From NCBI GenBank assembly GCA_900318175.1, contig ONJQ01000001.1, forward strand, positions 159,872 to 223,871: a stretch of DNA of 64,000 nt. Reading direction: 5' to 3'. Of the stretch, positions 1,053 to 39,163 are shown piece by piece. Origin of the DNA: an uncultured Bacteroidales bacterium (GTDB taxonomy: Bacteria; Bacteroidota; Bacteroidia; Bacteroidales; P3). A model generated the notes under the pieces. The model had not been told where the DNA came from, did no database searches, and was given only the letters and a program-made list of their open reading frames with translations. Both the position numbers and the translations under genes were made by a program. The first letter of the stretch is position 1. Each line of letters starts with the position of its first letter.

Positions 1053-1484
1053 ATGGAAGAAGAAAACAAACTTTACGCATTTCTCTCAAACCTGGTGAAT
1101 CAGGCTGAGGCACGGATGGGGTATCCTGCGGGATATGCTAACGGATATGTCGCTTTGCCGCCTACACATCCGTTCCACAATATCTATTACAGTGAGATAG
1201 ACGAACATGTCTCTGTACACGGCGGGCTGACATTCAGCCAAAGTATAGACATCATCAAACAAGACAAAGACTGGGAACAATGTACCGAGTGCATAGGATT
1301 CGAGAGCCTCAACGAGATACCTGCGGGCTATTGGGTGGTGGGCTTCGACACGATGCGCTTCAGCGACGGGGGGCTCAACAGGGATTGGTGCATCGAGGAG
1401 ACGCTACGGCTGAAGAAACAATTAGAGGCCCTGACGGGAGAGCAGCCGAGAACGGCTGCCGAGGGGAAAGGAGGCGACCAATGA
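1053..1484 (+). CDS. Conserved phage hypothetical with HGGLT motif
   Basis: 143 aa. Motifs in order are GYANGYVALPPTHPFH, VHGGLTFS and YWVVGFDTMRFSDGG. This pattern (GYV..HP..G, HGGLT, GFD) is shared by a widespread family of uncharacterised phage proteins; its function is unknown. The last 15 residues (EQPRTAAEGKG) come from an in-frame copy of the 18-nt palindrome at 1442-1459, so the natural C-terminus may once have been shorter. Its stop overlaps the next start as ATGA. Confidence 0.75.
   Translation: MEEENKLYAFLSNLVNQAEARMGYPAGYANGYVALPPTHPFHNIYYSEIDEHVSVHGGLTFSQSIDIIKQDKDWEQCTECIGFESLNEIPAGYWVVGFDTMRFSDGGLNRDWCIEETLRLKKQLEALTGEQPRTAAEGKGGDQ
1442..1459. repeat. 18-nt palindromic element, in-frame in a gene
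   Basis: GCAGCCGAGAACGGCTGC: 7-bp perfect stem with an AGAA loop, here inside the 3' end of the HGGLT gene. Confidence 0.8.
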
Positions 1485-1750
1485 GCTGCGATTGCATCAA
1501 TAGAATAGAAAAGGATCTCCTTCAGAAGATGACTGAGCAATACCCCGGCTATGAAGTTGTCGAGGAACCGAAGTTCGAAAATCGTACAATAATAATTGGC
1601 GACAAAGACATCTCCATGATCATAGGAAATCCTGTGATTGGTAGAGTTCGCAAAGGAAAAGCAATAAGGATATACAAAACCCAAATGCTCCCTTCATACT
1701 GCCCGTACTGTGGAGAAAAACTAAGAAAGGAGAAAGGGGGTGAGGGATGA
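1481..1750 (+). CDS. Small zinc-ribbon-like phage protein
   Basis: 89 aa, starting MSCDCINRIE at the ATGA overlap with the previous gene; longer upstream readings would lie inside that gene. A C-terminal CPYCGEKL knuckle plus N-terminal Cys3 and Cys5 could bind zinc. Proteins of this shape, with an N-terminal CxC and a C-terminal CPxCG, are common small early products in Bacteroidales phages. No function is assigned. It overlaps the next gene by 4 bases, so translation is probably coupled. Confidence 0.7.
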   Translation: MSCDCINRIEKDLLQKMTEQYPGYEVVEEPKFENRTIIIGDKDISMIIGNPVIGRVRKGKAIRIYKTQMLPSYCPYCGEKLRKEKGGEG

Positions 1751-1950
1751 ATATAGAATTATTCGTACAATGTTCTTACACCGTGAACGGCGAATTTGAT
1801 AATGTGCCTGACGAGATTGCAAAAAAGCTCATTGATATGGATGAAGTTACAGAAAACTCAGAAGTATACGACTGGCTCAGTGACCATATCAAAGAGAGTG
1901 ATGCAGCCGATTGGAGCTTTGATATTTTTAACGCGAATGAACAGGGATGA
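1747..1950 (+). CDS. Hypothetical small acidic protein
   Basis: 67 aa, acidic (many Asp and Glu), starting at an ATGA overlap. No known domain is recognised. Tight packing with neighbours on both sides supports expression. Confidence 0.6.
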   Translation: MNIELFVQCSYTVNGEFDNVPDEIAKKLIDMDEVTENSEVYDWLSDHIKESDAADWSFDIFNANEQG

Positions 1951-2051
1951 CAAATAACGAACTGCGAAATACCATGTCCTGGAGCATCTTCTACGTGACC
2001 ATCGGCCGCGGCAACACCGAACTGTTGAAAGAAATACAAGAAAGGAATTAG
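1947..2051 (+). CDS. Hypothetical 34-aa micro-protein
   Basis: An ATG inside the previous stop (ATGA) opens a 34-codon frame, starting MTNNELRNTM and ending KEIQERN. It fills the space exactly to 2 bases before the next start. Support is positional only. Confidence 0.45.
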   Translation: MTNNELRNTMSWSIFYVTIGRGNTELLKEIQERN

Positions 2052-2052
2052 A

Positions 2053-2220
2053 ATGATACCTTATCAAGATGCACTTTTAGAAAGAATACAAGATGCCGTC
2101 TGCGACTTTATTGATTTTACCGATAACGAAGTTAATACCTTTACGTTGACCGTCGAAATCACGGCAGACAATGGAGTCGTATTCAAGCCTAAAAAAATAG
2201 AGAAAGGAGGCGAGGGATGA
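2053..2220 (+). CDS. Hypothetical 55-aa protein
   Basis: Starts MIPYQDALLERIQDA and ends KKIEKGGEG. The C-terminal KGGEG, from a GGAGGCGAGGGATGA sequence, recurs at the ends of several neighbouring genes (2662, 4186): this stretch gives both a C-terminus and an SD-like GGAGG before the next ATG. It overlaps the next gene by ATGA. Function unknown. Confidence 0.55.
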   Translation: MIPYQDALLERIQDAVCDFIDFTDNEVNTFTLTVEITADNGVVFKPKKIEKGGEG

Positions 2221-2662
2221 ACAAAATGAAAGTATATGTCGCCAGTAGTTGGCGCAACGAACACCAGCAGTCGATTGTTGAGGAACTGCGCAAAATGGGC
2301 TTCGAGGTATATGATTTCAGGCATCCTAACGGAGAGGCGGGATTTCAATGGAGTAGAATTGACGAAAAGTGGCAGGGCTGGAGTATGGAAGAATATAGGG
2401 AAGCCCTCAAACAGACTACGCCCAATTTGGCTTCAACAGAGATTTTGATGCAATGAAAGAGGCTGACATCTGTGTATTGTGTCTGCCGTGCGGTAGGAGT
2501 GCCCACCTCGAAGCAGGGTGGATGAAAGGTGCCGGCAAAAAGGTCATTGCGTACATTCCGCAAGACGTGAAGATTGAGCCGGAATTGATGTATGGTTTGC
2601 TTGACGGAATTGCCATCTGTATCCAAGATATTGAGCAGATGCTGAAAGGAGGCGAGGGATGA
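2217..2662 (+). pseudogene. Nucleoside 2-deoxyribosyltransferase-like gene, frameshifted
   Basis: Two consecutive frames join into one family member. Frame 1 (2217-2456) gives MKVYVASSWRNEHQQ, GFEVYDFRHP and WQGWSMEEYREALK. The -1 frame reads DYAQFGFNRDFDAMKEADIC, then LPCGRSAHLEAGWMKGAGK and IEPELMYGLLDG. In intact relatives these segments are continuous. The break lies at about 2411-2417, where a single missing base would explain it. The second frame has its own ATG at 2453 overlapping the first stop (ATGA), so a split product is possible. Intact relatives are predicted to act on nucleotides or nucleosides. A read error is equally possible. Confidence 0.75.
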
Positions 2663-2925
2663 GATATGACAAACTGGGCAACGCGGTGTTGCATAGGCTT
2701 GGGAAGGGCGCGAGTTTCGCGGAGGTGTACCTCACGGCTGTGGAGCTGGGGGTCAGCATCGAGTCGAAAGGGCCGGGACAGGTGGTGATGAGGCGGAAGA
2801 CCGGGGAGGACCGGCTGGGGTATCCGATAGAAGAGACCCGGTTGGTCAGACCGGAAGTGGTGGCGGACCGGCTGAACGAAATGATGCTGGACGAGGGCAT
2901 CATCAAGGAGGAGCCAGAACCATAA
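2659..2925 (+). CDS. Hypothetical basic/acidic mosaic protein
   Basis: 88 aa, starting MRYDKLGNAVLHRLGKGASF at an ATGA overlap. A pattern of charged helices (EVVADRLNEMM) but no known domain. An SD-like GGAGGCGAGGG precedes the start. It ends just before a TAGA-type spacer array. Confidence 0.6.
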   Translation: MRYDKLGNAVLHRLGKGASFAEVYLTAVELGVSIESKGPGQVVMRRKTGEDRLGYPIEETRLVRPEVVADRLNEMMLDEGIIKEEPEP

Positions 2926-2957
2926 TAGAGTAGATAGAATGAATAGAAACGATAGAA
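2926..2957 (+). repeat. TAGATTTGA-type spacer array, degenerate
   Basis: Units such as TAGATAGAA and AATAGAAAC follow the upstream stop and end 13 bases before the next ATG. Confidence 0.5.
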
Positions 2958-2970
2958 AAAAAAGCGAGAA

Positions 2971-3168
2971 ATGGAAACGAAAGAGAAAACTACGCCTGTG
3001 ACGGCGGCGAAACAGCGGCGGGACAAGTCCGTGATGGAGAGGTTCCGCGAGTTGAAAGACAAGGTAGGACGCACGGCGGCGTACTACCGGGTGTGCGAGG
3101 AGTGCGGGCTGAGCTATGCCACTGTGGTGGGGATTGTCAAAAGAATGGAGGGCAGCAAGGATGAATAA
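2971..3168 (+). CDS. Small HTH-like protein
   Basis: 65 aa, basic. Residues 20-60 (MERFRELKDKVGRTAAYYRVCEECGLSYATVVGIVKRME) read as two helices followed by a turn and a recognition-like helix, suggesting DNA binding. Overlaps the next gene by 8 bases. Regulatory role inferred. Confidence 0.6.
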   Translation: METKEKTTPVTAAKQRRDKSVMERFRELKDKVGRTAAYYRVCEECGLSYATVVGIVKRMEGSKDE

Positions 3169-3547
3169 CAGGATATACATCAGCGGGAGGATCACAGGCG
3201 AGCCGGAGCGGGAGTGCCGCAGGAAGTTCGACCTGGCCGAGGCGAAGGTGGAGGATTTCGTGTTCTTCGACCACTACGGGGTGACGGTGTACCTGGCGAC
3301 AGGGAAGATACGGTACCGTGCGGTGAACCCGTGGCGGCTCAGGCTGCTTGGGAAGAGGCTGGGGAGATGGCCGTGGAGCGTGGCCATGGCGGTGTGCCTG
3401 TGGAACGTGGCGCGGAGCTCGACGGTGTACATGCTGCGGGACTGGACACGGAGCCGGGGCGCGCGGATGGAGAACACGCTGGCGCAGCTGCTGGGGAAGA
3501 ACGTCATCTACGAGGAGGACGAACAGAGAGAATTGTTTTTGGGTTAA
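3161..3547 (+). CDS. DUF4406-like phage protein
   Basis: 128 aa. It starts MNNRIYISGRITGEPERE, the N-terminal signature of DUF4406, and ends with the family pattern YMLRDWTRSRGARMENTLAQLLG. DUF4406 proteins have a Rossmann-like fold related to nucleoside 2-deoxyribosyltransferases. Between these blocks is a basic, partly hydrophobic insert (RYRAVNPWRLRLLGKRLGR). The ATG at 3161 was preferred because it starts at the family N-terminus and overlaps the previous stop by 8 bases. It is the second protein of this superfamily in the operon, after the frameshifted gene at 2217. Confidence 0.75.
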   Translation: MNNRIYISGRITGEPERECRRKFDLAEAKVEDFVFFDHYGVTVYLATGKIRYRAVNPWRLRLLGKRLGRWPWSVAMAVCLWNVARSSTVYMLRDWTRSRGARMENTLAQLLGKNVIYEEDEQRELFLG

Positions 3548-3808
3548 TACTCGGTCGGCAGAACGCCGGTCGCTGGATTCATTGGTCTGGTCTTTCATTG
3601 CCAGCGACTCCCGCCGGGGCGGTACCGGCGGGGACCACCAAGGGAACACTGCGAACACTGCGGCGTCGGATGACAGCCGGGAAAGACCGGCATGCCGGCC
3701 GAGCGCGGCCGGCGACGGGGCGAGAGGGACACATAAATCTGGACTGACCTCCGCCGGGAGCGAGGCCCGGCGCCCCACAAGAATTAGACACACAAAAAAA
3801 AGAAAGAC
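3548..3808 (+). other. GC-rich hairpin-dense spacer, possible structured RNA
   Basis: This 261-bp gap has no convincing gene. It holds a chain of perfect inverted repeats: CGCTGG/CCAGCG (3571-3606), CGCCGG/CCGGCG (3612-3630), CCGGCATGCCGG (3687-3698), GCCGGCC/GGCCGGC (3694-3713) and CGCCGGG/CCCGGCG (3752-3772). It lies inside an otherwise tightly packed operon. A structured RNA, a processing site or a replication site are all possible. Confidence 0.4.
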
Positions 3809-4186
3809 ATGAAGTATTACATTGGAAGAATCAACACATGGAAGGCTCCGAACAATAAATGCGAGGAGCTGAACAGGGAGATTAAGACGTATGAGAACAC
3901 CCTGGTGGCCGACGAGCTATCGAGGAAGGCACTGATGGAGCAGGTGCGCCAGACGGTGGAGCGGCTGAACGCGGCCTATCCACGGACAAGGAAGCTGGTG
4001 GTGGTGACGCGCCAGGGCAGTGTGATATGCCACCCGGAACAGCGAGTGTCGGACAACGACGCGGTGTTCAGCTTCGAGCTGATGCCGGTGCGGCGGAGCT
4101 ACCGCTTTGCCGAAGGGGGCTGCCCCGCGATCCCGGAGGGCTGCGCGGGGTCGCTGACGGAAGGAGGCGAGGATGGGCGGGCGTAG
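3809..4186 (+). CDS. Hypothetical early protein
   Basis: 125 aa, starting MKYYIGRINTWKAPNNKC after an A-rich leader. The middle part is amphipathic-helical (LSRKALMEQVRQTVERLNAAYP), and a beta-rich segment follows (RKLVVVTRQGSVICHPEQR). No domain is recognised. The C-terminus (LTEGGEDGRA) is encoded by the SD-like GGAGGCGAGG before the next start, which it overlaps by 14 bases. Confidence 0.65.
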   Translation: MKYYIGRINTWKAPNNKCEELNREIKTYENTLVADELSRKALMEQVRQTVERLNAAYPRTRKLVVVTRQGSVICHPEQRVSDNDAVFSFELMPVRRSYRFAEGGCPAIPEGCAGSLTEGGEDGRA

Positions 4187-4778
4187 GGCGGTGAGCGCGG
4201 CGGCGCAAGCCCGGCGGAAGGAGACCGCGAACTGGAAGCGGCCCTGGACGGAGCGCGAGGTGCTGCACCTGAAGCTGCTGTTCGGGCAGGGTCGGGGCGA
4301 CGAGCAGATAGCGCTGACGCTGGGGAGGACGGCATGCGGGGTGGGCTGCATGCGGAGGCGGAAAAGGCTGAACCGGCCGACCGTCATAGAGATCCGGAGG
4401 AAGCGGAACAGGTGGACGAAGGAGGAAGAGGAGTTTATCCGGCTGTGGTGGCGTGAGCTGAGCGACGAGAAGATCGGGCGGAAGCTCAGGAAGAGCGCGT
4501 GGCGGGTGCAGCGGAAGCGGCTGAGCATGGGGTTCAAGAAGGAGCGGAGGGACATTCCCGGACGGCGGAGGGGGTGGGGCTACAGAGACGAGGAGACGCT
4601 GAAGGAGCTGTACCCCCGGCACTCGGCGAAAGAGATACAGCGGTACCTGCGGGACCGGCACACGGAAAAGAGCATACAGCAGAAGGCCGCTGCGCTGGGG
4701 CTGAGGAAGGAGAAGAGGGGGCGATGCCTGACGGTGGAGGAGTACTACCGGAGGGCTAAGAGCGGGGTGGTTAGATAG
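4173..4778 (+). CDS. Triple SANT/Myb-like DNA-binding protein
   Basis: 201 aa, strongly basic. Three repeats of about 45 residues each begin with an aromatic or acidic helix and end with a basic helix: WTEREVLHLKLLFGQG (about 23-68), WTKEEEEFIRLWWRELS (about 82-125) and YRDEETLKELYPRHSAKEIQ (about 131-180). This is the tandem-helix layout of SANT/Myb-type or GcrA-like DNA-binding modules. Its place before the primase suggests a regulator of early transcription or replication. The stop codon TAG is the first unit of the spacer array that follows. Confidence 0.65.
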   Translation: MGGRRAVSAAAQARRKETANWKRPWTEREVLHLKLLFGQGRGDEQIALTLGRTACGVGCMRRRKRLNRPTVIEIRRKRNRWTKEEEEFIRLWWRELSDEKIGRKLRKSAWRVQRKRLSMGFKKERRDIPGRRRGWGYRDEETLKELYPRHSAKEIQRYLRDRHTEKSIQQKAAALGLRKEKRGRCLTVEEYYRRAKSGVVR

Positions 4779-4824
4779 ATTTGATAGATTTGATAGATTT
4801 GATAGACTTAATAGATACGATAGT
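4776..4824 (+). repeat. TAGATTTGA spacer array
   Basis: Five to six units: TAGATAGATTTGA, then TAGATTTGA twice, then TAGACTTAA and TAGATACGA. It begins at the upstream stop codon and ends one base before the next ATG at 4825. Confidence 0.85.
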
Positions 4825-5178
4825 ATGAATTTTAGAGATTGGTATTACAATTTGGCCAGTGAGGCCGAGCGGGCGGAGGCGCGGCGGGTGGCGGAGGCCA
4901 CGGCGGGGCTGCCCGAGTACGAGCGGACGCGGAAGCGGGCGCGGTACAAGGTGACGAAGCTGTGCCGCGGGCGGGGGCTGACGATCACGACGGACACGGC
5001 GAAGCACTGCATGCGGTGGCGGGTAGCGGAGGCCGCGGGGAGCGAGGAGATGCAGTTCGGGAGCGAGGAGGAGGCCAAGGCCTTTGCCCGCGAGGAGACC
5101 CGGACGGTCGCGGAGGTGCTGGGGAGCATCGTGCCGGTGTGGTTGGTGGGACTCGACGGAAAGGCGGAGGTGATATGA
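4825..5178 (+). CDS. Hypothetical basic protein
   Basis: 117 aa. The N-terminal half is rich in Glu, Ala and Arg (ASEAERAEARRVAEATAGLP), the C-terminal half mixed. It starts directly at the end of a spacer array. No domain is recognised. The last codons overlap the next gene (ATG at 5175). Confidence 0.6.
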   Translation: MNFRDWYYNLASEAERAEARRVAEATAGLPEYERTRKRARYKVTKLCRGRGLTITTDTAKHCMRWRVAEAAGSEEMQFGSEEEAKAFAREETRTVAEVLGSIVPVWLVGLDGKAEVI

Positions 5179-5414
5179 GACTGCTGCGGGGAGCATACGG
5201 GAGGGTGGCGGAGGCCACGGGGTACACACCGGAACATGTGAGGGCGGTGCACAAGGGGCGGCGGCGGAACGCGATTGTCGAAGCCCTGCTGCAGGAGGAG
5301 GCCGAGAAGGCCGCGAAGGCGGCCCGTGTGCGGGAGAGGCTGAGGAAGGCGGGGCAGACACAGGGCAGCCGAGAACGGATGCAAACAAAAAGAGACACCA
5401 ATGATAAACGCTGA
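5175..5414 (+). CDS. Small HTH-like protein
   Basis: 79 aa. Residues 5-35 (RGAYGRVAEATGYTPEHVRAVHKGRRRN) have the spacing of a Cro/CI-type helix-turn-helix. A charged coiled-coil-like tail follows. The ATG at 5175 fits the HTH and overlaps the previous stop. A degenerate palindromic element at 5364-5382 encodes its C-terminal GSRERM. It overlaps the primase start at 5401 by 14 bases, so it may be co-translated with the primase. Confidence 0.6.
   Translation: MRLLRGAYGRVAEATGYTPEHVRAVHKGRRRNAIVEALLQEEAEKAAKAARVRERLRKAGQTQGSRERMQTKRDTNDKR
5364..5382. repeat. 18-nt palindromic element, degenerate
   Basis: GGCAGCCGAGAACGGATGC: one mismatch in the right arm; lies inside the small HTH gene. Confidence 0.6.
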
Positions 5415-8400
5415 AGATATACAGCAATTGAAGGGGAGCGACATCCGGCGCGTGGTGGAAGCGTGCGGGGTGGAGCTGAAGGAGCGCAGCGGGCGGCTGA
5501 CGGCATGCTGCCCGTTCCACAACGAGAAGACCCCGTCGTTCACGGTGAACGAGGAGGGGCACTACTACCACTGTTTCGGGTGCCACGAGCACGGGAACCC
5601 GATAGACTTTGTGATGAGGCACCGGGGGCTGGGCTTTGTGGAGGCAGTGAAGGCCGTGGCGGAGATAGTGGGGCACGAGCTGACGGAGGAGGTGCAGAGC
5701 CCCGCGGAGCAGAAGAAAGCCATAGAGAAGGAGAAGACGCGGAGGGGGCTGAAGGCCATCAACAAGGAGGCCATGCTGTGGTACCAGCGGCAGCTGGGGG
5801 AGAACCGGCTGGCGCAGGAGTATGCCTACAGCCGTTGGAACAAGGAGACGGTGGAGCTGTGGGGGATAGGGTACGCGCCGGACAACAGCCATGCGCTGAG
5901 CGAGTACTTAGAGAGCAAGGGGTACAGAGCGGACCAGATAGAGGCCGCGGGGCTGAGCGCGACGGGGCGGAACGGCCAGCGGTACGACATATTCCGTGGG
6001 AGGCTGATGTTCCCGGTGAAGGACCAGATGCACGAGGTGCTGGGCTTCAGCGGGCGGCAGCTGGTGATGGACGAGACGAAGGGCGGGAAGTACATCAACA
6101 CGCGGACGACGGAGATCTACAAGAAGAGCGACGCGCTGTTCGGGCTGAACATGGCGGCGGCGAAGATACGGAAGAGCGGCGAGGCGGTGATAGTGGAGGG
6201 GAACCCGGACACGGTGAAGATGCACCAGATCGGGGTGAGCAACGTGGTGGCATGCTGCGGGACGGCGATGCCGAAGGAGGTGATCGAGAAGCTGAGGGGG
6301 ATGTGCCGGAGCGTGACGCTGATGTACGACAGCGACGAAGCCGGCCAGGCCAACACCGAGAGCAACGGGCGGCGGCTGCTGGAGGCGGGGCTTACGGTCT
6401 ACACGCTGACGATACCGGACAAGGCGGGGCTGACGGGGAAAGAGGCAAAACAGGACCCGGACACATTCTTCAAGGACAAGGAACACTACGACGAGTTTGG
6501 CCGGGAGAACCGGAAGCCGTGGCTGCAGTGGTGGGCGGAGAAGAACAAATGGAAGGCCAGCGACCCGTCGCGGAGCGCGAGCTTCAAGGCGGAGACGGTG
6601 CAGCTGATGAAAGGGATGCCGAGCTACGAGCGGAACGGGTACATCACGATGCTGGCCAAACTGTTCCCGATGAAGGGAGAGTGGAACGCGGCGATGAAGG
6701 AGGCATTGAGCGCGGGCAGCGGGAGCATGGAGGTGAACGAAGAGGGCTTCACGAAGGAGGAGGCCGAGACGGTGAAGCGGTGGCGGTTCTACGCAAGGAA
6801 CCACCACTACTATGTGAAGAGCAGCGAGAGCGCGTTCCACGATGTGAGCAACTTCACGCTGGAACCGCTGTTCCACATAAAGAGCACCTACGACGCGCGG
6901 AGGCTGTACAGGATGACGAACGACTGCGGGGTGAGCGAGGACATGGATCTTGAGCAAAAAACCCTGACGAGCAAGCAAGCCTTCATCACGGCTGTGGAGA
7001 GCTTAGGCAACTTTCTGTTCACGGGGAGCGACGCGGACCTGGCGGTGATCAAAGGCTACCTGTACGCGAACACGAAGAGCTGCAAGAAGATTACGCAGTT
7101 AGGGTGGCAGAAGGAGGGGTTCTGGGCCTGGGCCAACGGCGCACTGACGGCAGAGGGGGCATGGGTGCCCATCAACGACCTGGGCATTGTGCAGGTGGGG
7201 GGGATGGAATACTACATCCCGGCGTGCAGCAGCGTGACGGTGATGGACGAGGGACTGTACAAACTGGAGCGCAAGACCTTACACGAAGAGAGCGGAGCCG
7301 ACCTGAAGACCTGGTGCACGAAGATGCGAGCCACCTACGGCGAGAACGCGGTGGCGGCGGTGAGCTACTGCTTAGCGGCGTTGTTCCGGGACGTGTGCGT
7401 TCAGCGGTTCGACTGTTTCCCGCTGCTGTTCGTGTTCGGCCAGAAGGGAACGGGTAAGACCAAATTCGTAGTGAGTCTGATGGGGCTGATGGGAAAACCA
7501 GAGAAGGGAGAAGACCTTACAAGCATTACCGACAGTGCCATGGGCGAGTACCTGAGCAAAGTGCGGAACGGGTACGTGCATATCGACGAATACAAGAACG
7601 ACGCTCGGCCCACACAGATAGCGATGCTGAAGGGCGTGTATGACAGCCGCGGGCGCAGCAAGATGAACATGGAGCGCGGGAAGCAGCGGGAGCAGACCCC
7701 TGCGGACTGCGGCCTGATATTGAGCGGGCAGGAGATGTGCACGGCTGACAACGCACTGTTCAGCCGGACGCTATACCTGACGACCTCGAAGACGAGCTGG
7801 ACAAAGGAGGAGCAAAAGACATTCGAGGACCTGAAAGACTACGAGAAGCGGAGCCTGACGCCCATCACCAACCGGCTGCTGAGCCACCGGCGGGAGGTGG
7901 AGGAGAGGTTCGGCGCGAGCTACCAGCAAGCCTATGACGACCTGCGGCACGAGGTGGAGGTGGGGAAGATAGACGGGCGCATTGTGGAGGACTGGTGCAT
8001 GGTGCTGGCGATGCAGCACACGCTGCTGGGCTGCGGGGTGGAGCTGCCATGGAGCTACAGCCAGCTGGTGGAGATTTTTGCAAACGCCATGGAGAGACAG
8101 GCGGCGAGCGTGAGCGACACGAACGAGGTGAGCGACTTCTGGCACGGCGTGGAGACGCTGCTGAGCGACGGCGAGATAGAGATGGAGTACGACATGAAGG
8201 TGTGGTACGGGAAGACAGGACTGAAGCTGACCGTGGGCGAAGGGAAGAGCCAGCACGTGTGGGAGCCGACAAGGGCCTACGACGTGGTGGTGCTGAACCC
8301 GGCGCGGATCTTCAAGGCCTACGCGCGGATGAACGCCCAGGCGAAGACGCGGGGCGGCGGGACGGTGCCGCAGGAGACGCTGCAATACTACCTGACAGCC

Positions 8401-8646: not shown

Positions 8647-8685
8647 CAAATCAACAATATCAATAACTTAAAAAAAATAAAGACC

Positions 8686-8922
8686 ATGTACAAAATGCAA
8701 TTCACAATCGACAAAAAGAGCTGCGACAACGCGGACGCAGCTGTGCAAAACATGACTAACGCCGTGATGGAAGTGGGCGCCCTCGGGGGGACGGTGCAGC
8801 TGGACTGCGGCGGCATAGGGCTAAGCCTGACCGTCAAACAGGCCAACGACCTGATGTTCTCGCTGAAGAAAGCGCAGTGGGAAGCCAAGGCGCAAAAGAG
8901 AGGGGGTGAGAGATGGAGTTGA
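8686..8922 (+). CDS. Hypothetical early protein
   Basis: 78 aa, starting MYKMQFTIDKKSCDNADAAV after an A-rich leader. A single alpha/beta unit with a Gly-rich turn (GALGGTVQLDCGGIG). No known domain. It overlaps the next gene by 10 bases. Confidence 0.6.
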   Translation: MYKMQFTIDKKSCDNADAAVQNMTNAVMEVGALGGTVQLDCGGIGLSLTVKQANDLMFSLKKAQWEAKAQKRGGERWS

Positions 8923-9980: not shown

Positions 9981-10010
9981 ATATGATAGATATGATAGAT
10001 AAAATAGATA
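9978..10010 (+). repeat. TAGATATGA spacer array
   Basis: About three units (TAGATATGA twice, TAGATAAAA) starting at the upstream stop codon. ATG triplets inside the units create an alternative N-terminus MIDMIDKID for the next gene. Confidence 0.8.
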
Positions 10011-10039
10011 GCACTAAACGGCGCGGGCGGCGCGACAAT

Positions 10040-10549: not shown

Positions 10550-10568
10550 TTGTGCGGAAAATGTCCCT

Positions 10569-10585: not shown

Positions 10586-10611
10586 GAAAAAACGTTATTT
10601 TGGGAGAAAAA

Positions 10612-31843: not shown

Positions 31844-31846
31844 GCG

Positions 31847-31927
31847 GCAGCCGAGCACGGCTGCTGTGGGGGTGAGGGCGGCAGCCGAGCACGGCTGAGG
31901 CTTTGGGCGGCAGCCGAGCACGGCTGC
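31847..31927. repeat. Three palindromic elements in late spacer
   Basis: Copies with AGCA loop at 31847-31864, 31881-31898 (right arm one base changed) and 31910-31927, spaced 29-34 bp, just upstream of late promoter P4. Confidence 0.9.
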
Positions 31928-31939
31928 CGCTGGCGGGGG

Positions 31940-31975
31940 TGTCCCTTCGGGAGTGTGGGAATGGTTGTATCTTTG
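31940..31975 (+). promoter_or_regulatory. Late promoter P4 (tail operon)
   Basis: TGTCCCTTCGGG at 31940 and TATCTTTG at 31968-31975: again 28 bp. Nearly identical to P3. Confidence 0.85.
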
Positions 31976-31988
31976 CAGAAGAAAAAAT

Positions 31989-33587
31989 ATGGTGACACTT
32001 GAAACACAGCCCAGGTATGTAAGCTTCGCGGGAGACCGCGCGAAGTACGGTTTATCGTGCAGCGACTTGGCGAGCGGCGGAAGGGCTGCCAGATTCGGCG
32101 TAGGCATAACTTCCGGGCTCTTTGCCTACGGGCGGAGTCTGATAGTGGAGCTGAACGGGATGACGCTTTACTTTGTGAGGTCGGTGGTGGCGCTGCCTGT
32201 TGCCGGAACGGCGACGGGGCTTGATGCCTACACGTGGAGTACAGTGGACACGCTGCGGCGTGTACTGGAGGATAATCTTTATGTGAGCGAGCTGTTCGAG
32301 GTGGAAGACCCTTCACCGGAGGATGCCAATGTAGATTTTTGGCTGGTGGCCAAAAGTGTCGGGGTCCTGGATGTGGCGGTGCGCAGCAATGCCGCGGCAC
32401 TGGCTTGCAGGATTGTGACGGAGGATGGCGAGGATGCCGCCTTGTTGAAGAACTACACGTTGCAGACCGCCTTCGAGTTTGAGACCGGCGGGAAGAGCCA
32501 GTGGCTGCATTATTGGCCTGTGGACGGCCGGGTGGAGCTCGGGACGGACCTGCTGAAGGGATATTTCGGAGCCCCGTCGCTACCGGGGCGCGTCGAGGGT
32601 TACGGGGCGAGGGAGCAGGTGGACGCGGTGCTGAGGTACAGGCTGCGCTACTATGAGTGCTTCGGTGAGGTGCCCGTGGCCTATGGTCTGCACACCGGGG
32701 ATTGGAAGCTGCTGCTGAGAGGCGAGACAGTGGAGAAGTATGCCCTGGAGGGCGTGCCGGACTGGCGGGATGAACACCAGGGGGCACAGGTGGGCGGAGG
32801 CCGGCTGCGGGTGATAGGTTCCGACACGCGCAAGAAGTGCGAGGTGCGGCGGAACCAGGCGGAGTACATTTACTTGTTTTGGGGCGACGAGAGCGGCACT
32901 GCTGAGTCCAAGACTGTGACGGGAATATTGCGGCAGTGGCTGTCCGACGGCACAGAGACAGAGACGGCGTTGCCGGAACTGAGCATTGCGGGGAACAGGG
33001 TGTATCGTGTGGCGGTGGGGCCGTCGGCGGTGGGGCTGTCGGGCGATGCGGCCGTATATGAGATTGCTTTGAGTTATGACGGCCGGCTGGTGTGGCGTCG
33101 GGAGTGGGAGGTGATGCCCTCCTTCTACTACGAGCACCAGCTGCTGCTGATGGACAGATACGGGTTGATGAGAACCTGGATGGCGCAGTACGTGAAGCGG
33201 AGCGTGGCCTTCGAGGCCGACGAGGTGCTGAACGAGGGGCGCAGGATGTACGACGTGACAGACCGGGTGGAGGAGTTCACTGCTGTGGGTGCGAAGATGC
33301 GAACCGAAGAGGCGCAGCGGATGGCGCAGAGTCATGGTAGCGAGTGGGCATATATATGGGCCAACGGGCAGTGGTGCCGTATCTCGATCAAGCCGGGGAG
33401 TGTGACAGTGGAGGACGAAGGCGGCGGGATGGCGCAGGTGACGCTGGAGTTTGTGTTCGTGGCCAACAAGCGGAACAATATCGGCCGGGTTGAGGTGCAG
33501 CAGAGAGGTAACGTTGTCGATGGGGCATTGATGACCGAGGACGGTTTCTATCTTATGACAGAAAACGGAGAAATAATAACAATCTAA
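31989..33587 (+). CDS. Putative distal tail / baseplate protein
   Basis: 532 aa from ATG 31989, 13 bases after the -7 box; an upstream ATG at 31953 would lie inside the promoter. Beta-rich throughout, no signal, no catalytic motif. It follows the tape measure and precedes the fibre gene, the usual place of Dit-like proteins. The C-terminal part ends GALMTEDGFYLMTENGEII, a short beta repeat also seen at ends of other Bacteroidales phage tail proteins. Confidence 0.6.
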   Translation: MVTLETQPRYVSFAGDRAKYGLSCSDLASGGRAARFGVGITSGLFAYGRSLIVELNGMTLYFVRSVVALPVAGTATGLDAYTWSTVDTLRRVLEDNLYVSELFEVEDPSPEDANVDFWLVAKSVGVLDVAVRSNAAALACRIVTEDGEDAALLKNYTLQTAFEFETGGKSQWLHYWPVDGRVELGTDLLKGYFGAPSLPGRVEGYGAREQVDAVLRYRLRYYECFGEVPVAYGLHTGDWKLLLRGETVEKYALEGVPDWRDEHQGAQVGGGRLRVIGSDTRKKCEVRRNQAEYIYLFWGDESGTAESKTVTGILRQWLSDGTETETALPELSIAGNRVYRVAVGPSAVGLSGDAAVYEIALSYDGRLVWRREWEVMPSFYYEHQLLLMDRYGLMRTWMAQYVKRSVAFEADEVLNEGRRMYDVTDRVEEFTAVGAKMRTEEAQRMAQSHGSEWAYIWANGQWCRISIKPGSVTVEDEGGGMAQVTLEFVFVANKRNNIGRVEVQQRGNVVDGALMTEDGFYLMTENGEIITI

Positions 33588-33599
33588 CGACAAAAAGAG

Positions 33600-35777
33600 A
33601 TGGAAAGCAAGAAAATATCGGAGCTGGAACAGTATAACGGAAGTGCCAACGGTTTTATGGTGCCTGGTGTGGCCGGCGGGGAGACCCAGAAGGCAGACCT
33701 GGGCGCGATGGTGGACAAAGGGGCCGGTGCGGCCGGGTACGTGAAGAGTACCGACCTGAAGACGGTGAACGGGGTGCCCCTCACCGGGCAGGGGGACGTT
33801 GCGCTGGAGCTGGCCAACCCGTTCAAGGGGTATTACCCTGCCGGAGAGGCAAAGCCCGGTGAAGGGGCTGTTGGGGATTATCTGTACGCCCCTCCGTCCG
33901 ACGCGCAGTCTACTGCCACGGCAACCCTCTGGCATTATGATGCCCTCCAGACCCCTCCGTGGTCGGATACTGGGATTGATGTTAGCAGCGTTGTGGGCGT
34001 GGCATTTGGCAGCGGGCAGCCTGTCTCCCAGGTGCGTATCAAGAATGACTTCAGCGGCGGACAAGGAGATGTGCTGAGTGCGGAGGCCGGTCGGCAGCTC
34101 AGCGAGGAGGTTGCCGCGATCAATAAGCCGGACAAGACCGTCTTGATGGATCAGGAGGGGTACATCAAGTGGTCCACGGGAAACAGGACGGCGGTGTCGG
34201 GATACTTTTGTTCGGACTTCGTCGAATTGTCCGGCTACACTGAGTTGAACTACACTCTTAATGCCATTGGGACGACGGCTGCCAATATTGCTTTCTACGA
34301 TGCTGACAAGGTGTTTTTGCCGGAAATATCTGTGCGGGGGAATAGTGCGGTGCAGACGGGAGATATTGACTTGTCCGCTGCCGCGTATGAACAGGCGGTG
34401 TATGTGCGAGTCAGCGAGCCTGTGGCGGATGTGGCCGGGACGGTGGTGCTGGCGGCCAACTCCATAATCCCGCAAATAATGGCGGGTGTAGAGTCTTTGG
34501 CGCAGGATGTGGACGGGCTGAATGACAAGGTGGACGGGATAGTGGTGGAAGATGTTTCCGCTGACATAACTATAAACGGATATATCAAGTGGGAGACGGG
34601 GCTGGGTACCGGAACGTCAGAGACGTATAAGCGCAGCGACTATATAGGGTTGAGTGGTTACACCGACATTGAATACCGCGTTGGTGGAGCAATTTCGGGC
34701 GTGGCGGCTGTTGTTGCCTTCTACGACGCTGACAAGGGTTATTTGCAAGAGGTGTCGGTGCGGGGGAATAGTGCGGTGCGGACGGGTAGGATAGACCTGG
34801 CCGATGCCGCGTATGCTTCGGCAAGATTTGTGCGTTTTTGCGCGGCTGCGTCATTGACCGACGCCTATGCAAGGTTGTATAATCGAGAGACGTTGAGTTA
34901 TGAGGTCTCTGAGCTTGAAAGAAGGGTAAGCCAGTTGGACCAGACGGGTGGCATCAAAGTGCTGATTTTCGGCGATAGCATTACGGACAATATGGGTTTG
35001 AGTGTGAATGATACGACCAACTGTTCTGAATCGTGCTACTTCAGGACGACGGATTATGTAAACGGAGATGGACAAACGGTTGTGTATAAAAAGTGGCCGC
35101 AGCTGTTGGCTGAGTTTTTTGGAACTGATGAGGTTCGGAATTATGCCCGTAGTGGAGCATCGTACAAAGACCAACCGTCCTATACAAGTGGTGAGAACAG
35201 GCGAAGAAGTTTATCGTACCAGATAACTGTAGCTGAAAATGATTTGTCCAACCCCAACGGGGTTTTCCCGACAGAAGGAACTTATGTCCCGGATGTTGTT
35301 GTGTTTGCCCTTGGCACTAACGACGGGAATCCTAATGACACTTTTGAGTCGGCCATTGCTAAGATAGTGTATAATTCAGAAGATAATGTTAATACGAGCG
35401 TTGATGTAGAAGCGACGCTGGCGGCGTTGGACAAGTCCAAGTTCAACGAGGCTGTGATGTATGCCTTTCTGAAGGTTAAATCAATGTTCCCGACGGCCTT
35501 GTTTATGTGTCTGTTGCCCATACAAAGATGGTCCAACACTGCTGTGATGGGGGGGTTGCACGAAAGCCTGAAGGCTATGGCCAACTACTTTTCTATTCCC
35601 GTGATTGACGGAGCATCTGAGATGGGGGTGGTGAAGGCGTTGGAGGTGGATAGTGGGGTCGGCGAACTGCTGAAGGACGGCTTGCATCCCAATGAGAAGG
35701 GGCAGAATGTAATGGCAAGAATGATGATTAGCCAGATTAAGAGTAGGTTTGTGAGCATGGCTGGGATGAATAGTTGA
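33600..35777 (+). CDS. Tail fibre with SGNH/GDSL hydrolase domain
   Basis: 725 aa. N-terminal about 130 residues are fibre-like (KKISELEQYNGSANGFMVPG; VNGVPLTGQGDVAL). Two copies of a roughly 100-residue beta module follow (about 182-285 and 325-425), sharing GYIKW, LSGYT, FYDADK and VRGNSAV. The C-terminal domain is an SGNH hydrolase: GDSIT with Ser460, Gly in ARSGAS, GTND at 572-575, and Asp693/His696 in DGLHP. It probably deacetylates or de-esterifies surface polysaccharide. The hydrolase part is visibly less GC-rich than the rest of the gene, suggesting acquisition of a receptor-binding module. Confidence 0.85.
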   Translation: MESKKISELEQYNGSANGFMVPGVAGGETQKADLGAMVDKGAGAAGYVKSTDLKTVNGVPLTGQGDVALELANPFKGYYPAGEAKPGEGAVGDYLYAPPSDAQSTATATLWHYDALQTPPWSDTGIDVSSVVGVAFGSGQPVSQVRIKNDFSGGQGDVLSAEAGRQLSEEVAAINKPDKTVLMDQEGYIKWSTGNRTAVSGYFCSDFVELSGYTELNYTLNAIGTTAANIAFYDADKVFLPEISVRGNSAVQTGDIDLSAAAYEQAVYVRVSEPVADVAGTVVLAANSIIPQIMAGVESLAQDVDGLNDKVDGIVVEDVSADITINGYIKWETGLGTGTSETYKRSDYIGLSGYTDIEYRVGGAISGVAAVVAFYDADKGYLQEVSVRGNSAVRTGRIDLADAAYASARFVRFCAAASLTDAYARLYNRETLSYEVSELERRVSQLDQTGGIKVLIFGDSITDNMGLSVNDTTNCSESCYFRTTDYVNGDGQTVVYKKWPQLLAEFFGTDEVRNYARSGASYKDQPSYTSGENRRRSLSYQITVAENDLSNPNGVFPTEGTYVPDVVVFALGTNDGNPNDTFESAIAKIVYNSEDNVNTSVDVEATLAALDKSKFNEAVMYAFLKVKSMFPTALFMCLLPIQRWSNTAVMGGLHESLKAMANYFSIPVIDGASEMGVVKALEVDSGVGELLKDGLHPNEKGQNVMARMMISQIKSRFVSMAGMNS

Positions 35778-35811
35778 GGTTTGGCCGCGGGCAGGGTTTT
35801 GGTGCTTGCGG

Positions 35812-35829
35812 CCAGCCGAGAACGGCTGG
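35812..35829. repeat. Palindromic element, CCAGCCG variant
   Basis: CCAGCCGAGAACGGCTGG: outer pair changed on both arms, so the stem stays perfect. Lies in the spacer after the fibre gene. Confidence 0.85.
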
Positions 35830-35846
35830 ATTTAAAACCATGAGAT

Positions 35847-36116
35847 ATGAAACGGTTACGGACTAAGGGATTGCAGTGGCACGCGGTGGCGTTTGCGGTT
35901 TGCCTGGCGGTGTCGATAGGATTGATTGTGGGGGGGTTCTCTGTGCCTCCCAAGGGTGTTATCGACGGGTCGGTGCTTACGGGTGTGGGTGAGTTGTTTG
36001 GGTTTGCCGCATTGGCGCAGATTCGTTCGCTGGTGGCGCGGGGGAAGGGGGTGAAGATACAGCACGGGACTACGTCGGTGTCTGTTGGGGATGAGGAGGA
36101 TTTGGACCCTTGTTGA
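35847..36116 (+). CDS. Small membrane protein, holin candidate
   Basis: 89 aa, starting MKRLRTKGLQWHAVAFAVC. One clear membrane helix (about 11-31) and a weaker one (about 48-62), with a basic N-terminus and an acidic C-terminal tail (VGDEEDLDP). Small proteins of this shape are frequent near tail genes of Bacteroidales phages. A holin-type role in releasing the lysins is plausible but not shown. Confidence 0.6.
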   Translation: MKRLRTKGLQWHAVAFAVCLAVSIGLIVGGFSVPPKGVIDGSVLTGVGELFGFAALAQIRSLVARGKGVKIQHGTTSVSVGDEEDLDPC

Positions 36117-36125
36117 TTTTTTTTT

Positions 36126-36158
36126 ATAGATTTGATAGATATGATAGATATGATAGAG
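36126..36158 (+). repeat. TAGATATGA spacer array
   Basis: TAGATTTGA, TAGATATGA twice, TAGAGAGAT. The ATG at 36150 of the next gene lies inside the array. Confidence 0.85.
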
Positions 36159-36443
36159 AGATTAAGTCATTGTGTAATTTGTTTTTTGGGCGAGTCGCAC
36201 AGAGGGGCCCACTTGATTGTGGGCCTCTTTGGCGGCTTGTTTTTTACGGCCTTGTTTACGATAGTCTTTGCTTTCGGCATGGAGCTGAAAGAGGTGCAAG
36301 CCGACCGTGAGAATACAGGCAGACCGTGGTGGAAGCCGTGGGGGTTGTGCTGGCGGAAGTGGGACTGGATTGATGTCGGGATGACTGTTGGCGGAGGGGT
36401 TGTCGGGAATGCGGTATGGATTTTAGCTCTAATAAATGTGTGA
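36150..36443 (+). CDS. Small membrane protein
   Basis: 97 aa from ATG 36150; earlier ATGs add only MID repeats. Two or three membrane segments (HLIVGLFGGLFFTALFTIVF; VGMTVGGGVVGNAVWILAL) separated by a Trp-rich loop (RPWWKPWGLCWRKWDW). With the preceding gene it may form the lysis membrane module, or it may be a phage surface-exclusion protein. Its stop TGA overlaps the next ATG (TGATG). Confidence 0.6.
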   Translation: MIERLSHCVICFLGESHRGAHLIVGLFGGLFFTALFTIVFAFGMELKEVQADRENTGRPWWKPWGLCWRKWDWIDVGMTVGGGVVGNAVWILALINV

Positions 36444-39100
36444 TGATAGAGGTACTGGTGGCGGGCCGGGGCCTGAGCATACCGGCGGATACGGAGATCA
36501 TCCTCGAACAGAACGCGGCATGGGCGAACCTTGACGAGATTGGCGGGGATATAGTCTGGACGTTCACTGTTCCGGCGAAGGCGAACGAGGCTGTGCTGGA
36601 CCAGGCGGGGCATATAATAGTGTCGAGGCACAAGCGATATGCCGCTGAGGTACGGTTCGACGGGGTGCCTATTGCGCGCGGGGAGCTGTATGTTCAGCAG
36701 GCGCAGAACGAGGAGCAGCTGAACTGCGGGATGACGCTGAACACCTTCGCCCCGGGCTGGGGAGCGAAGAAACTGAAGGATAACGAGTACAAAGAGGTCG
36801 TGGAGATAGGCACGAGCGCGGACACTTACAAAGCAGAGTGGCTGGCGTTCCTGAGGGGGACGCTGGCGGCGGACAGCCCGTACAAGTTCTTCCTGTTTAT
36901 CGACCAGGAGTTTATGGGAGACAACCCTGATTATGGTTGGTACAGGGGTGCGCTGAGCCACCTGACGAGCAACAGCAGCGCGCAGAATCAGATGGCCAAG
37001 TATGTGAACCGGCTGCTGGTGGACGGGGAGGGGGAGATTATCAACCGCCCGGACAGTGACGGGTTGGGTGCAAGGATCTTCAACTCGGCGGACATGGTGG
37101 CCGCCGACGCCAAGGTGAACGGCTACCATTGGGCACCGGCAGTGCGGCTCGACCATTTAGTGCGGAAGGTCATGGAGAGTTGCGGGATGGGGGTGCAGGG
37201 CAGTTTCTTGCGGAATGCCTTCGTGGGGAGGCTGTACGCTCAGAGTATGAATGCCATGGACGGCAACATACTTCAATACCCCGTGGTGCAGAGGGTGACA
37301 TTGAGCGGGCAGGTGGCCGCCGGCAGCGTAGCCCCTGAGGCTATCGACAACACTATACCCGTAAATGTGGGGGAAGCGGGATGCCCTGGGTTCAGCGTTG
37401 CCAATGGCTTTGTTGCGGACGGGATGACGGTCTCGTTCAGGATGATGCTGCCTGTGCTGGGGCTGGCCAGTGTGGACTTGGACGGGCACCCGTTGGACTA
37501 CAGCCACTATGATGAGGCGTTGTTCCTGGTGTTCCGGCAAGACAGCGACACGCCGTTGCCACGGTACCGCGCGAACCTGAACGCCTCACAGGCGACGGGG
37601 GACCCGGTGTACATCTATGGGGACATGATAGACAGCGAGACCTACGTCAGGACGATCGGGCCGTTGAGCGGGGGGGTGCTGCTGATGAACGGCGACGAGG
37701 CATCGAACGGCGGGCATCTGTTCCAGCGGCCGGGGAGTGCGTTCATGGTGCAGATGAGCCGCACGCTGAAGTTCAATCCGGGGTACGGAACCATACACAG
37801 CGAATACTATATCGGGACGGCGGAGGTGAACGGGTCGATGGCCACGGGACTGACGGGCAGCCACAGGTTCTATGCGCAACTGGTGAAGTGCAGGGTGAAG
37901 ACCTTCAAGGACACGCCGTACCTGTACCAGATGCAGACAAGCGACGGAGCCACGTTTACCGTGAATCCCAACTATGACACAAGTATAATCGAGGAGCTGA
38001 CAGACTACGAAGTGATAGACTTCGCTGATTACAGCTATTGCGACACGAGGCTGAATGTGTTTGCGCGGTCGTTCGACCTACGGCAGCACGTACCCAACCT
38101 CACTAACGGCGAGTTCTTGAAAGAGATGTGCAAGTTCTTTGGGCTGAACCTGTACGTCGGAGGGTTCCAGCGGCGGGTGCAGCTGTCCTTTTTCGGGGAC
38201 GTGCTCAGGGCCCGCTCGATGGCCATAGACGCCTATGTCGTGGGGATGACCAAGATGACGTATGAGACGCACAACTACAAGCTGAAGGTGCAGCCGGTGC
38301 TGGGCGTGGTGGAGGTGAATCCGCAGAAGGACGCAGGGGAGTACACGACGAGGGAGGAGCTGCCCTTCCCGCAGACCAAGAAAGGGAAGTATGCCTATGT
38401 CCGCAATGAGAACAGCTGGAGGGTGAGCGAGCAGAGGGAAGAGGACGACGAGGGAGAGACTTCGGCCGCGACGTACAACTGGATCCACAGCAAAGGGAAC
38501 AACTACGGGCTGAACGTGGGGGACCCCGAGAAGGACGAGGAGGAGGTGAAGAGTGCCATCCGGGTGCCTAACATGCGATGGACGGACACGAAAGCGACGG
38601 CGAAGTATCTCAACGAAGTGCCGCAGTCGGGATGCAGCTCGATGATGCAGGATGAGTACACCGGTGAGTTCGACATGATTTTGCAGCAGTACCGAGGACG
38701 GAGACTGTTGCAGTTGCAGAAGGCCGGAGAGGTGACGGAGGGCTATATCGAGGACGCAAACCCCACTTGGTACAACGAGGACGGTAGCGTTGACCGGAAC
38801 GCGCTGAACCTTACGGCCACCGGGGAGCAGAGCGTGGGCGAGATGTGGCAGCGGCCATACTACGGGTTCCTGGCCACGAAGGAAGACGCAGAGTTCGTGG
38901 TGAAGTGCCCGGCGAGGGTGTTCCTGGATCTGTATGCCTTGATGCAGCCGCAGGACAAGTCGGAGAGCGAGCAGGTGCGGTGGGTGTCGTTCAGGAGCCA
39001 GCGGTATCTGCCGAGCCGTATCAGTTACCAGTTCGGGAAGTCGGGGACGGTGACGGCCACCATCACCTGTTCGCGGGAGCATTACGATGCGGGTATTTGA
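36443..39100 (+). CDS. Large putative tail/baseplate protein
   Basis: 885 aa from ATG 36443, which overlaps the previous stop; the upstream ATG at 36416 lies within that gene. Starts MIEVLVAGRGLSIPADTEI. Mostly beta-rich with segments typical of tail proteins (PVVQRVTLSGQVAAGS; NLTNGEFLKEMCKFFGLNLY). No catalytic motif is seen. Position at the end of the tail operon suggests a baseplate hub or tip component. Confidence 0.55.
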   Translation: MIEVLVAGRGLSIPADTEIILEQNAAWANLDEIGGDIVWTFTVPAKANEAVLDQAGHIIVSRHKRYAAEVRFDGVPIARGELYVQQAQNEEQLNCGMTLNTFAPGWGAKKLKDNEYKEVVEIGTSADTYKAEWLAFLRGTLAADSPYKFFLFIDQEFMGDNPDYGWYRGALSHLTSNSSAQNQMAKYVNRLLVDGEGEIINRPDSDGLGARIFNSADMVAADAKVNGYHWAPAVRLDHLVRKVMESCGMGVQGSFLRNAFVGRLYAQSMNAMDGNILQYPVVQRVTLSGQVAAGSVAPEAIDNTIPVNVGEAGCPGFSVANGFVADGMTVSFRMMLPVLGLASVDLDGHPLDYSHYDEALFLVFRQDSDTPLPRYRANLNASQATGDPVYIYGDMIDSETYVRTIGPLSGGVLLMNGDEASNGGHLFQRPGSAFMVQMSRTLKFNPGYGTIHSEYYIGTAEVNGSMATGLTGSHRFYAQLVKCRVKTFKDTPYLYQMQTSDGATFTVNPNYDTSIIEELTDYEVIDFADYSYCDTRLNVFARSFDLRQHVPNLTNGEFLKEMCKFFGLNLYVGGFQRRVQLSFFGDVLRARSMAIDAYVVGMTKMTYETHNYKLKVQPVLGVVEVNPQKDAGEYTTREELPFPQTKKGKYAYVRNENSWRVSEQREEDDEGETSAATYNWIHSKGNNYGLNVGDPEKDEEEVKSAIRVPNMRWTDTKATAKYLNEVPQSGCSSMMQDEYTGEFDMILQQYRGRRLLQLQKAGEVTEGYIEDANPTWYNEDGSVDRNALNLTATGEQSVGEMWQRPYYGFLATKEDAEFVVKCPARVFLDLYALMQPQDKSESEQVRWVSFRSQRYLPSRISYQFGKSGTVTATITCSREHYDAGI

Positions 39101-39101
39101 C

Positions 39102-39139
39102 GCAAACGCCCACAGCCGAGAGCGGCTGCGGGCGTTTGC
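39102..39139. terminator. Long hairpin between convergent genes
   Basis: GCAAACGCCC-A-CAGCCG, loop AGAG, CGGCTG-C-GGGCGTTTGC: a 17-position stem with one mismatch, built around a palindromic element (39112-39129). It lies between the tail operon and the convergent recombinase gene and could end or insulate both transcripts. The following T-run is short. Confidence 0.5.
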
Positions 39140-39145
39140 TGTCGA

Positions 39146-39163
39146 GGCGGCCGAGAACGGCAG
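39146..39163. repeat. Palindromic element, degenerate
   Basis: GGCGGCCGAGAACGGCAG: intact inner stem, diverged outer stem. Confidence 0.55.

What the first reader, a model, noticed from the sequence alone, without database searches (positions are those of the whole stretch)
1442..39163. Dispersed 18-nt palindrome inserted both in spacers and in frame inside phage genes
About 18 copies of GCAGCCGAGAACGGCTGC or close variants (AGAA, AGCA or AGAG loop) are spread over the prophage: 1442, 5364, 9057, 9093, 14314, 14698, 14728, 15261, 24570, 26673, 26702, 30151, 31847, 31881, 31910, 35812, 39112, 39146. I saw none in the host part. At least eight lie within genes and keep the frame, adding residues like QPRTAA or AAENGG. 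Several copies differ in outer stem bases but remain perfectly paired. They lack T-runs, so they are not ordinary terminators. They resemble coding palindromic elements, such as those of Rickettsia, but in a phage.
Basis: partly seen in the sequence, partly recalled or inferred. Interest (0 to 1): 0.78.

Follow-up and report, generated by a model that had tools for sequence, protein, structure and literature searches.

The report
Oriented hairpin repeats scattered through phages
A dormant virus in a relative of rumen bacteria carries 21 copies of one tiny DNA hairpin, all pointing the same way, mostly just behind genes or in variable parts of proteins; other phages carry the same hairpin, so it looks like a spreading repeat family whose folded shape is preserved.

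Summary
Stems vary by compensatory changes. By my gene calls eleven copies lie wholly in spacers, five of them starting 3-11 nt after a stop codon; ten lie in ORFs, and those that could be compared sit in linkers, loops or tails that vary among relatives. A sister phage (70-81% identical DNA) has none.

The 16-nt core recurs, in one orientation per contig, in other phages: a Mu-like phage, a small repeat-rich contig, and a group whose longest record is 101.9 kb, with 27 and 22 model hits in its two largest records. In that group copies are present or absent between relatives, orthologous copies show compensatory double changes, in-gene copies encode VPDGSPSG-like peptides, and 12 of 38 start 7-14 nt after a stop codon.

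I read it as a REP-like, phage-borne dispersed hairpin family. An RNA role behind stop codons is likely but unproven; how it spreads is unknown. Nearest published parallel: the 17-bp palindromes of Cluster O mycobacteriophages, with invariant arms and no clear orientation.

The parts
1..40493 (.). Prophage part in the window; it starts upstream at about G000:C45:158372 (L006:17373)
   Evidence: direct repeat of the tRNA-Arg 3' end (about 31 bp) at L006:17373-17403 and window 40461-40493; integrase beside it
1442..1459 (+). Copy GCAGCCGAGAACGGCTGC in the C-terminal tail of ORF 1053-1484 (QPRTAA)
   Evidence: the PHROG match covers residues 26-125 only
5365..5382 (+). Copy with one stem mismatch, spacer 18 nt before the primase ORF 5401-8646
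9057..9110 (+). Two copies (9057, 9093), GCCGCCGAGAACGGCGGC/T, in the C-terminal tail of ORF 8913-9143 (AAENGG)
9310..9363 (+). Two copies (9310 loop ATAA, 9346) at the head of a 36-bp minisatellite in ORF 9133-9534 (listed by the tool from an earlier start, 9109)
14314..14331 (+). Copy in the spacer before ORF 14507-15253
   Evidence: sister sequence of equal length lacks it
14698..14745 (+). Two tandem copies (14698, 14728) in a variable linker of ORF 14507-15253 (QPSTAA, QPRTAA)
15261..15278 (+). Copy 7 nt after the stop of ORF 14507-15253
22704..22721 (+). Copy CCAGCCGATAACGGCTGG in a variable stretch of ORF 22159-23520
24570..24587 (+). Copy 7 nt after the stop of ORF 23498-24562; the sister has GATAGATTT arrays here
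26673..26719 (+). Two copies: 26673 at the 3' end of ORF 26088-26693 (AAENGC-stop), 26702 8 nt after that stop
30154..30171 (+). Copy with an 11-bp stem (from 30150) in a variable linker of the tape-measure ORF 27716-31843
31847..31927 (+). Three copies (31847, 31881, 31910), the first 3 nt after the tape-measure stop
35812..35829 (+). Copy CCAGCCGAGAACGGCTGG, 34 nt after a stop and 17 nt before the next start
39112..39164 (+). Two copies (39112, 39147) between convergent ORFs; the first sits at the tip of a 17-pair inverted repeat with one A-C mismatch
39190..40407 (-). Tyrosine integrase
   Evidence: Pfam Phage_integrase E 2.1e-18
40464..40538 (-). tRNA-Arg(CCG), attachment site

Best explanation
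This is a phage-borne, non-coding dispersed hairpin repeat: an 18-20 nt unit with core CAGCCGAGAACGGCTG, which works like the REP sequences of bacterial chromosomes but lives in phages. Shown: 21 copies in one prophage, one orientation, flanks unrelated, absent from the relatives examined; the same core dispersed in one orientation in other phages; pairing kept by compensatory change, also between orthologous copies; copies enriched just behind stop codons, the rest in other spacer positions or in frame in linkers and tails. Inferred: copies spread in cis by a strand-specific process (replication-linked copying, template switching or single-strand insertion), multiply locally by tandem duplication, and survive where they do no harm. 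Behind stop codons the hairpin probably acts in the mRNA, meeting the terminating ribosome or shielding the upstream 3' end. In linkers it is probably only tolerated.
For: Copy number, chance and confinement. Compensatory changes: 20 double-change cells against 8.6 +- 2.3 in shuffles, covariation score 0.286 against 0.105 +- 0.026. Copied unit ends at the hairpin: of 202 distant pairs, the 8 with flank likeness above the 99.9% background level are the duplicated 9-kb group or pairs whose flank holds a neighbouring copy. Orientation: 21 of 21; in whole records of other phages 26 of 27, 22 of 22, 10 of 10, and 6 of 6 three times. Placement: 8 of 14 clusters in spacers against 7.4% expected, p 2e-6. 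Five window copies start 3-11 nt after a stop, and 12 of 38 hairpins in the 101.9 kb phage start 7-14 nt after one, against about 3% of random positions within 0-14 nt. In-gene copies that could be compared sit in unconserved stretches. Presence/absence and same-locus double changes in the large-phage group.
Against: No transposase or copying enzyme is tied to the element, and no target-site duplication exceeds background. At 4 of 7 sites comparable with the sister the window shows no net gain of length, so replacement or selection in place is possible. One covariation measure, the number of pairs with a change on both sides, does not stand out (4 against 3.1, reached by 146 of 500 shuffles). 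Orientation relative to genes differs: sense in the window and in RUG14161, antisense in the Mu-like and large phages, so no single RNA loop is read in all; in the window nearly all genes at the sites are on +, so gene sense and replication strand cannot be told apart there. Pairing could be kept by template-switch mutation rather than by selection. Some orthologous copies show broken pairs. Single exact copies elsewhere in prokaryotes look like chance.
Confidence: 0.6

Rival explanations
1. Selected RNA hairpins: each copy is kept because a stable stem a few nt behind a stop codon affects termination, re-initiation or 3' end decay; spread is a minor matter.
For: Two phage lineages with opposite loop orientation both put stems about 7-9 nt after stop codons (window 7, 7, 8 of 11 spacer copies; large phage 9 of 38); G-U or U-G against A-C mismatches 10 to 2 on the transcribed strand; same-locus compensatory changes.
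Against: About half of the window copies are in genes, and other spacer copies are 34 nt or more from a stop; the closest relatives do without any copy.
Confidence: 0.2
2. Dispersed double-stranded DNA binding site for a phage protein, as in the stoperators of Cluster A mycobacteriophages.
For: One orientation, many copies, both spacers and genes; the Cluster O authors suggest dimeric regulatory proteins for their palindromes, though they think transcriptional regulation unlikely (PMC4351075, section 8).
Against: Arms vary with compensation; no model hit in L006, which holds a weakly repressor-like gene; in the pieces of relatives examined no exact 12-mer is dispersed at 4 or more places.
Confidence: 0.1
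3. Recombination boundary sequences that allow gene cassettes to be exchanged.
For: In L255 a 200-aa gene between copies is present twice at 100% identity, once in L241; Cluster O repeats show deletions between copies.
Against: 20-nt homology is short; in-gene copies do not mark cassettes; the duplication may be incidental or an assembly effect.
Confidence: 0.06
4. Degraded or partial intrinsic terminators.
For: Some single copies elsewhere are followed by T-runs: L001, L155, and an ATAA variant in L176. In the large-phage group 13 of 46 distinct copies have 5 or more T in the next 10 nt on the sense side, against 6 of 46 on the other side.
Against: 0 of 21 window copies have 5 T in the next 10 nt; only 6 of 46 in the large-phage group have a T-run of 4 or more on the sense side.
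Confidence: 0.04

Closest known systems
17-bp palindromic repeats of Cluster O mycobacteriophages (PMC4351075; abstract, outline, passages and section 8 read)
   Same: More than 30 copies of a short dyad-symmetric repeat through a phage genome, in spacers and in coding regions; absent from the host species; recombination between copies; function unknown.
   Different: There the arms are invariant, orientation has little meaning and positions are mostly conserved among relatives. Here arms covary, orientation is uniform, copies are enriched behind stop codons, the sister lacks them, and different phages share the core.
REP / REPIN elements of bacterial chromosomes (PMC3733652, PMC3116915, PMC12306157; passages read)
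   Same: Short hairpins near gene 3' ends, G-T stem pairs, sometimes inside genes.
   Different: No GTAG tag, no consistent CGTC tag, no linked RAYT found, direct not inverted pairs, in a phage and not the host chromosome.
Rickettsia palindromic elements (PMC10969869, passages read)
   Same: Palindromes in frame within unrelated genes.
   Different: RPEs are about 150 bp and chromosomal; these are 18-20 nt, in phages, and about half are in spacers.
Stoperators of Cluster A mycobacteriophages (PMC6550527, passages read)
   Same: As many as 30 sites, predominantly one orientation relative to transcription.
   Different: Stoperators are 13-bp sites bound by the repressor, and each genome of the clade has a set; the relatives of this prophage have no copies.

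Membership tests
REP elements | GTAG or CGTC tag beside the palindrome | tested here: not met
   GTAG/CTAC in 0 of 21 flanks (10 nt each side), CGTC/GACG in 2 of 21
REP elements | Linked RAYT transposase | tested here: not met
   one IS200-like Y1_Tnp gene of 150 aa, no model hit on its contig
REP elements | Short hairpin near the 3' ends of genes | tested here: met
   enrichment behind stop codons, though ten of 21 are in ORFs
REPIN | Doublets in inverted orientation | tested here: not met
   all clustered copies are direct, 21 of 21 on one strand
Rickettsia palindromic elements | In-frame presence in unrelated genes | tested here: met
   10 of 21 in ORFs
Rickettsia palindromic elements | About 150 bp unit and clean insertion against homologues | tested here: not met
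   unit ends at the hairpin; no net gain of length at 4 of 7 comparable sites
Cluster O-type phage palindromes | Many short palindromes in spacers and genes, not in host | tested here: met
Cluster O-type phage palindromes | Invariant arms, no meaningful orientation | tested here: not met
Stoperators | Sites bound by the phage repressor | not testable with these tools
   only indirect: no model hit in L006, which holds a weakly repressor-like gene
Intrinsic terminators | T-run after the stem | tested here: not met
   0 of 21 with 5 T in the next 10 nt

The most novel reading that the evidence does not exclude
A family of miniature hairpin elements moves between unrelated phages and within each by a strand-specific process, lands preferentially right behind stop codons, and also enters genes in frame, where the stem is rewritten by compensatory changes until it encodes a harmless linker peptide while still folding. 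It would be a phage counterpart of coding palindromes, with structure and protein both under selection.
Probability: 0.3. Interest if true: 0.78.

Novelty: new variant of a known kind. Interest (0 to 1): 0.62.

Why it matters
Short palindromes scattered through phage genomes have been reported (Cluster O) with no known function. Here the comparison is sharper: one core in several phage lineages, one orientation per genome, sister genomes with and without it, orthologous copies with compensatory changes, and a preferred place behind stop codons. That makes both questions testable: how such a repeat spreads, and whether a stem behind a stop codon does something for translation or mRNA decay.

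Tried and rejected
Rfam on window 1-41000: only the tRNA and one sub-threshold hit. Operator near the immunity region: no model hit in L006. Transposase link: only an IS200-like gene, no copy reported on its contig. Target-site duplications: not above background. Shared flanks: none beyond the hairpin for dispersed copies. Hairpin promoters such as those of N4 virion RNA polymerase (recalled): not pursued; no RNA polymerase was among the prophage proteins I scanned, which were not all of them. T4-type promoter stem-loop cassettes (recalled; one search listed only papers that hold the phrase): not compared. PMC2267715 was opened for a word search that found nothing on Bacteroides or phage. Wider distribution: in genome contigs 78 stretches hold the exact 18-mer; only the two RUG14161 stretches have more than one copy, so single hits there look like chance. 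In the order only the window's own genome passes E 0.005, 1 of 393, under stricter filters that found 16 of its 21 copies. In the family 16 of 189 genomes, own included, pass E 0.02, where about 4 are expected by chance and E-values are rough, so weak family hits are not all evidence. The 16-mer scan of viral contigs reported 111 stretches but listed 80. In one search the minus-strand ORF coordinates were faulty and were not used. In the cluster test the mixed cluster 26673/26702 was counted as a spacer cluster. That nothing closer is in print rests only on the searches.
Full report
WHERE IT IS. The window lies in an unnamed 2.9 Mb genome. The prophage runs from about L006:17373 to window 40493, between two copies of the end of tRNA-Arg, with a tyrosine integrase at its right end. 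It encodes a primase, a head protease, a tape-measure protein and a protein with a weak, below-cut-off terminase match.

THE OBSERVATION. Up to 3 mismatches from GCAGCCGAGAACGGCTGC give 25 matches, which are 21 sites, against 0.10 expected. The exact stem occurs 9 times in the genome, all here. A covariance model built from the 21 copies finds them again and nothing convincing elsewhere in the genome (best other site E 0.19). All 21 have the AGAA-type loop on the + strand. On this set, which was chosen without asking for pairing, 90.6% of cells of a 9-pair stem are paired, with 20 double-change cells against 8.6 +- 2.3 in shuffles (0 of 500); the number of pairs with any double change is not unusual (4 against 3.1, 146 of 500). 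Mismatches that pair in the transcribed RNA (G-U) outnumber those that pair only in its complement (A-C) 10 to 2, with 16 other mismatches; this is suggestive only. The six stretches I folded as RNA have energies of -16.7 to -64.5 kcal/mol, z-scores -2.7 to -6.4.

PLACEMENT. By my own gene calls spacers are 8.6% of the stretch, yet 8 of 14 clusters are in spacers (7.4% expected for an 18-mer, p 2e-6). Five spacer copies start 3, 7, 7, 8 and 11 nt after a stop; the others are 34 nt or more away. The spacer copy nearest to a following start ends 17 nt before it. In-gene copies that I could compare fall in stretches unconserved in 6 relatives (ORF 14507), 8 relatives (ORF 22159) and 3 relatives aligned across the site (tape measure); in 6 relatives of ORF 26088 the alignment ends before the hairpin. 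The model finds no copy in these relatives' loci. Three in-gene clusters (1442, 9057/9093, 9310/9346) had no relatives to compare.

SISTER PHAGE. IMGVR 3300021399_004559 (L005, L045, L166; 70-81% identical DNA over aligned blocks, tape measure 81% and terminase-like protein 85% identical in the best segment) has no copy. Of 7 comparable clusters, three (15261, 24570, 26673/26702) hold GATAGATTT-type or GAGTTGA-type arrays instead, the tape-measure linker holds AATGGGCTT repeats, and three hold other sequence. At four of the seven the window is not longer than the sister. The window prophage itself has GATAGATTT arrays in other spacers. Loci from more distant prophages of the family have no hit better than E 2.3.

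OTHER PHAGES. The 16-mer CAGCCGAKMACGGCTG hits 111 stretches of viral contigs, 80 of them listed; every listed contig with several copies has them in one orientation. Whole-record model searches of 9 records at E 0.05 give 27 (26 + and 1 -) in a 101.9 kb record, 22 (all -) in a 62.6 kb record, 10, 6, 6 and 6 (all +) in others, 3 sites on + plus mirror hits and one weak - hit in a Mu-like record, one site in L001's record, 0 in the sister. The records G578, G579 and G581-G583 share contexts, so they count as one group. The Mu-like contig has Mu portal and F proteins and an AAA protein with a below-cut-off MuB match. The host of the large-phage group is not established; its tape measure is weakly like those of Flavobacterium phages, among others. 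The single - copy of G578 lies between converging genes.

In 60 kb of the 101.9 kb record I found 32 hairpins (perfect stems, GA(A/G) or ATAA in the loop, GC-rich), 31 on +, while genes there are mostly on -. Of the 18 whose stem is not CCCAGCCG, 10 are followed by CAC, which was not a search criterion. Of 16 in-gene hairpins that I translated, 12 share one register on the sense strand and read like VPDGSPSG or VLGDSVAE, often in low-complexity stretches; one reads another frame; three lie in short plus-strand ORFs that may not be genes. Twelve of 38 + hairpins start 7-14 nt after a stop codon, nine of them at 7-9 nt, against 2.8% of random positions within 0-14 nt. Between relatives, 20 of 186 distinct alignments show a gap of 8 nt or more over the site, some clean: 36 nt between CCACC repeats (L239 against L215 and L274), a copy directly behind TAA (L249:462 against L424), in-frame differences of 21 and 33 nt (direction of change not known). 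At the same locus pairing is kept by double changes (L424:8139 against L249 and L257; L425:11846 against L255; L237:5939 against L222), but other orthologues have broken pairs (L424:222 in L257 and L211, L424:553 in L257, L239:492 in L274). A 200-aa gene between two copies in L241 is present twice, 100% identical, in L255.

COPIES IN HOST-GENUS GENES. In RUG14161 (G104) six copies lie in frame (SRARL) in repeated linkers of two paralogous proteins.

READING. The common core in different phages, the presence/absence changes and the unrelated flanks speak for a repeat that is copied. The one orientation per genome, sense in the window but antisense in two other lineages, speaks for a strand-specific process and against one RNA loop being read. 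The spacing behind stop codons, alike in two lineages, and the compensatory changes speak for a stem that matters, most simply in the mRNA. I could not separate selection on pairing from template-switch mutation, and I know no enzyme that copies it.

COMPARISON. The 17-bp palindromes of Cluster O mycobacteriophages are the closest published case that I found. REP and RPE elements share the behaviour but fail defining features (membership table).

Noticed in passing
window 4774-4816, 10610-10644, 25246-25281, 27673-27712; L045 956-14440: Nine-nt arrays (GATAGATTT and variants) fill spacers, often right up to the ATG, in this prophage and more so in its sister phage.
   Followed up: partly
L002 6150, 7606; L003 1221, 1305, 2751; L175 304, 1176; L178 1160: A second dispersed hairpin family, stem-GGC G(G/A)T GCC-stem with varying stems and a 3' TACGC tail, in the Mu-like phage and in two genomes of the host genus: 8 of 15 distinct hairpins of that shape in the loci held have the tail.
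   Followed up: partly
L222 2677, L274 325 and 4049, L241 1137: A further repeated hairpin, GTCGCTAT-G(A/G)C-ATAGCGAC, in the large-phage group.
   Followed up: no
window 9319-9511: 36-bp minisatellite encoding GAVGNGGAPVGT that seems to have grown from two copies of the hairpin.
   Followed up: partly
window 9531-9980: Small phage protein with a DnaA C-terminal DNA-binding domain.
   Followed up: no
window 48362-48706: 98-bp tandem repeat in the host part of the window.
   Followed up: no
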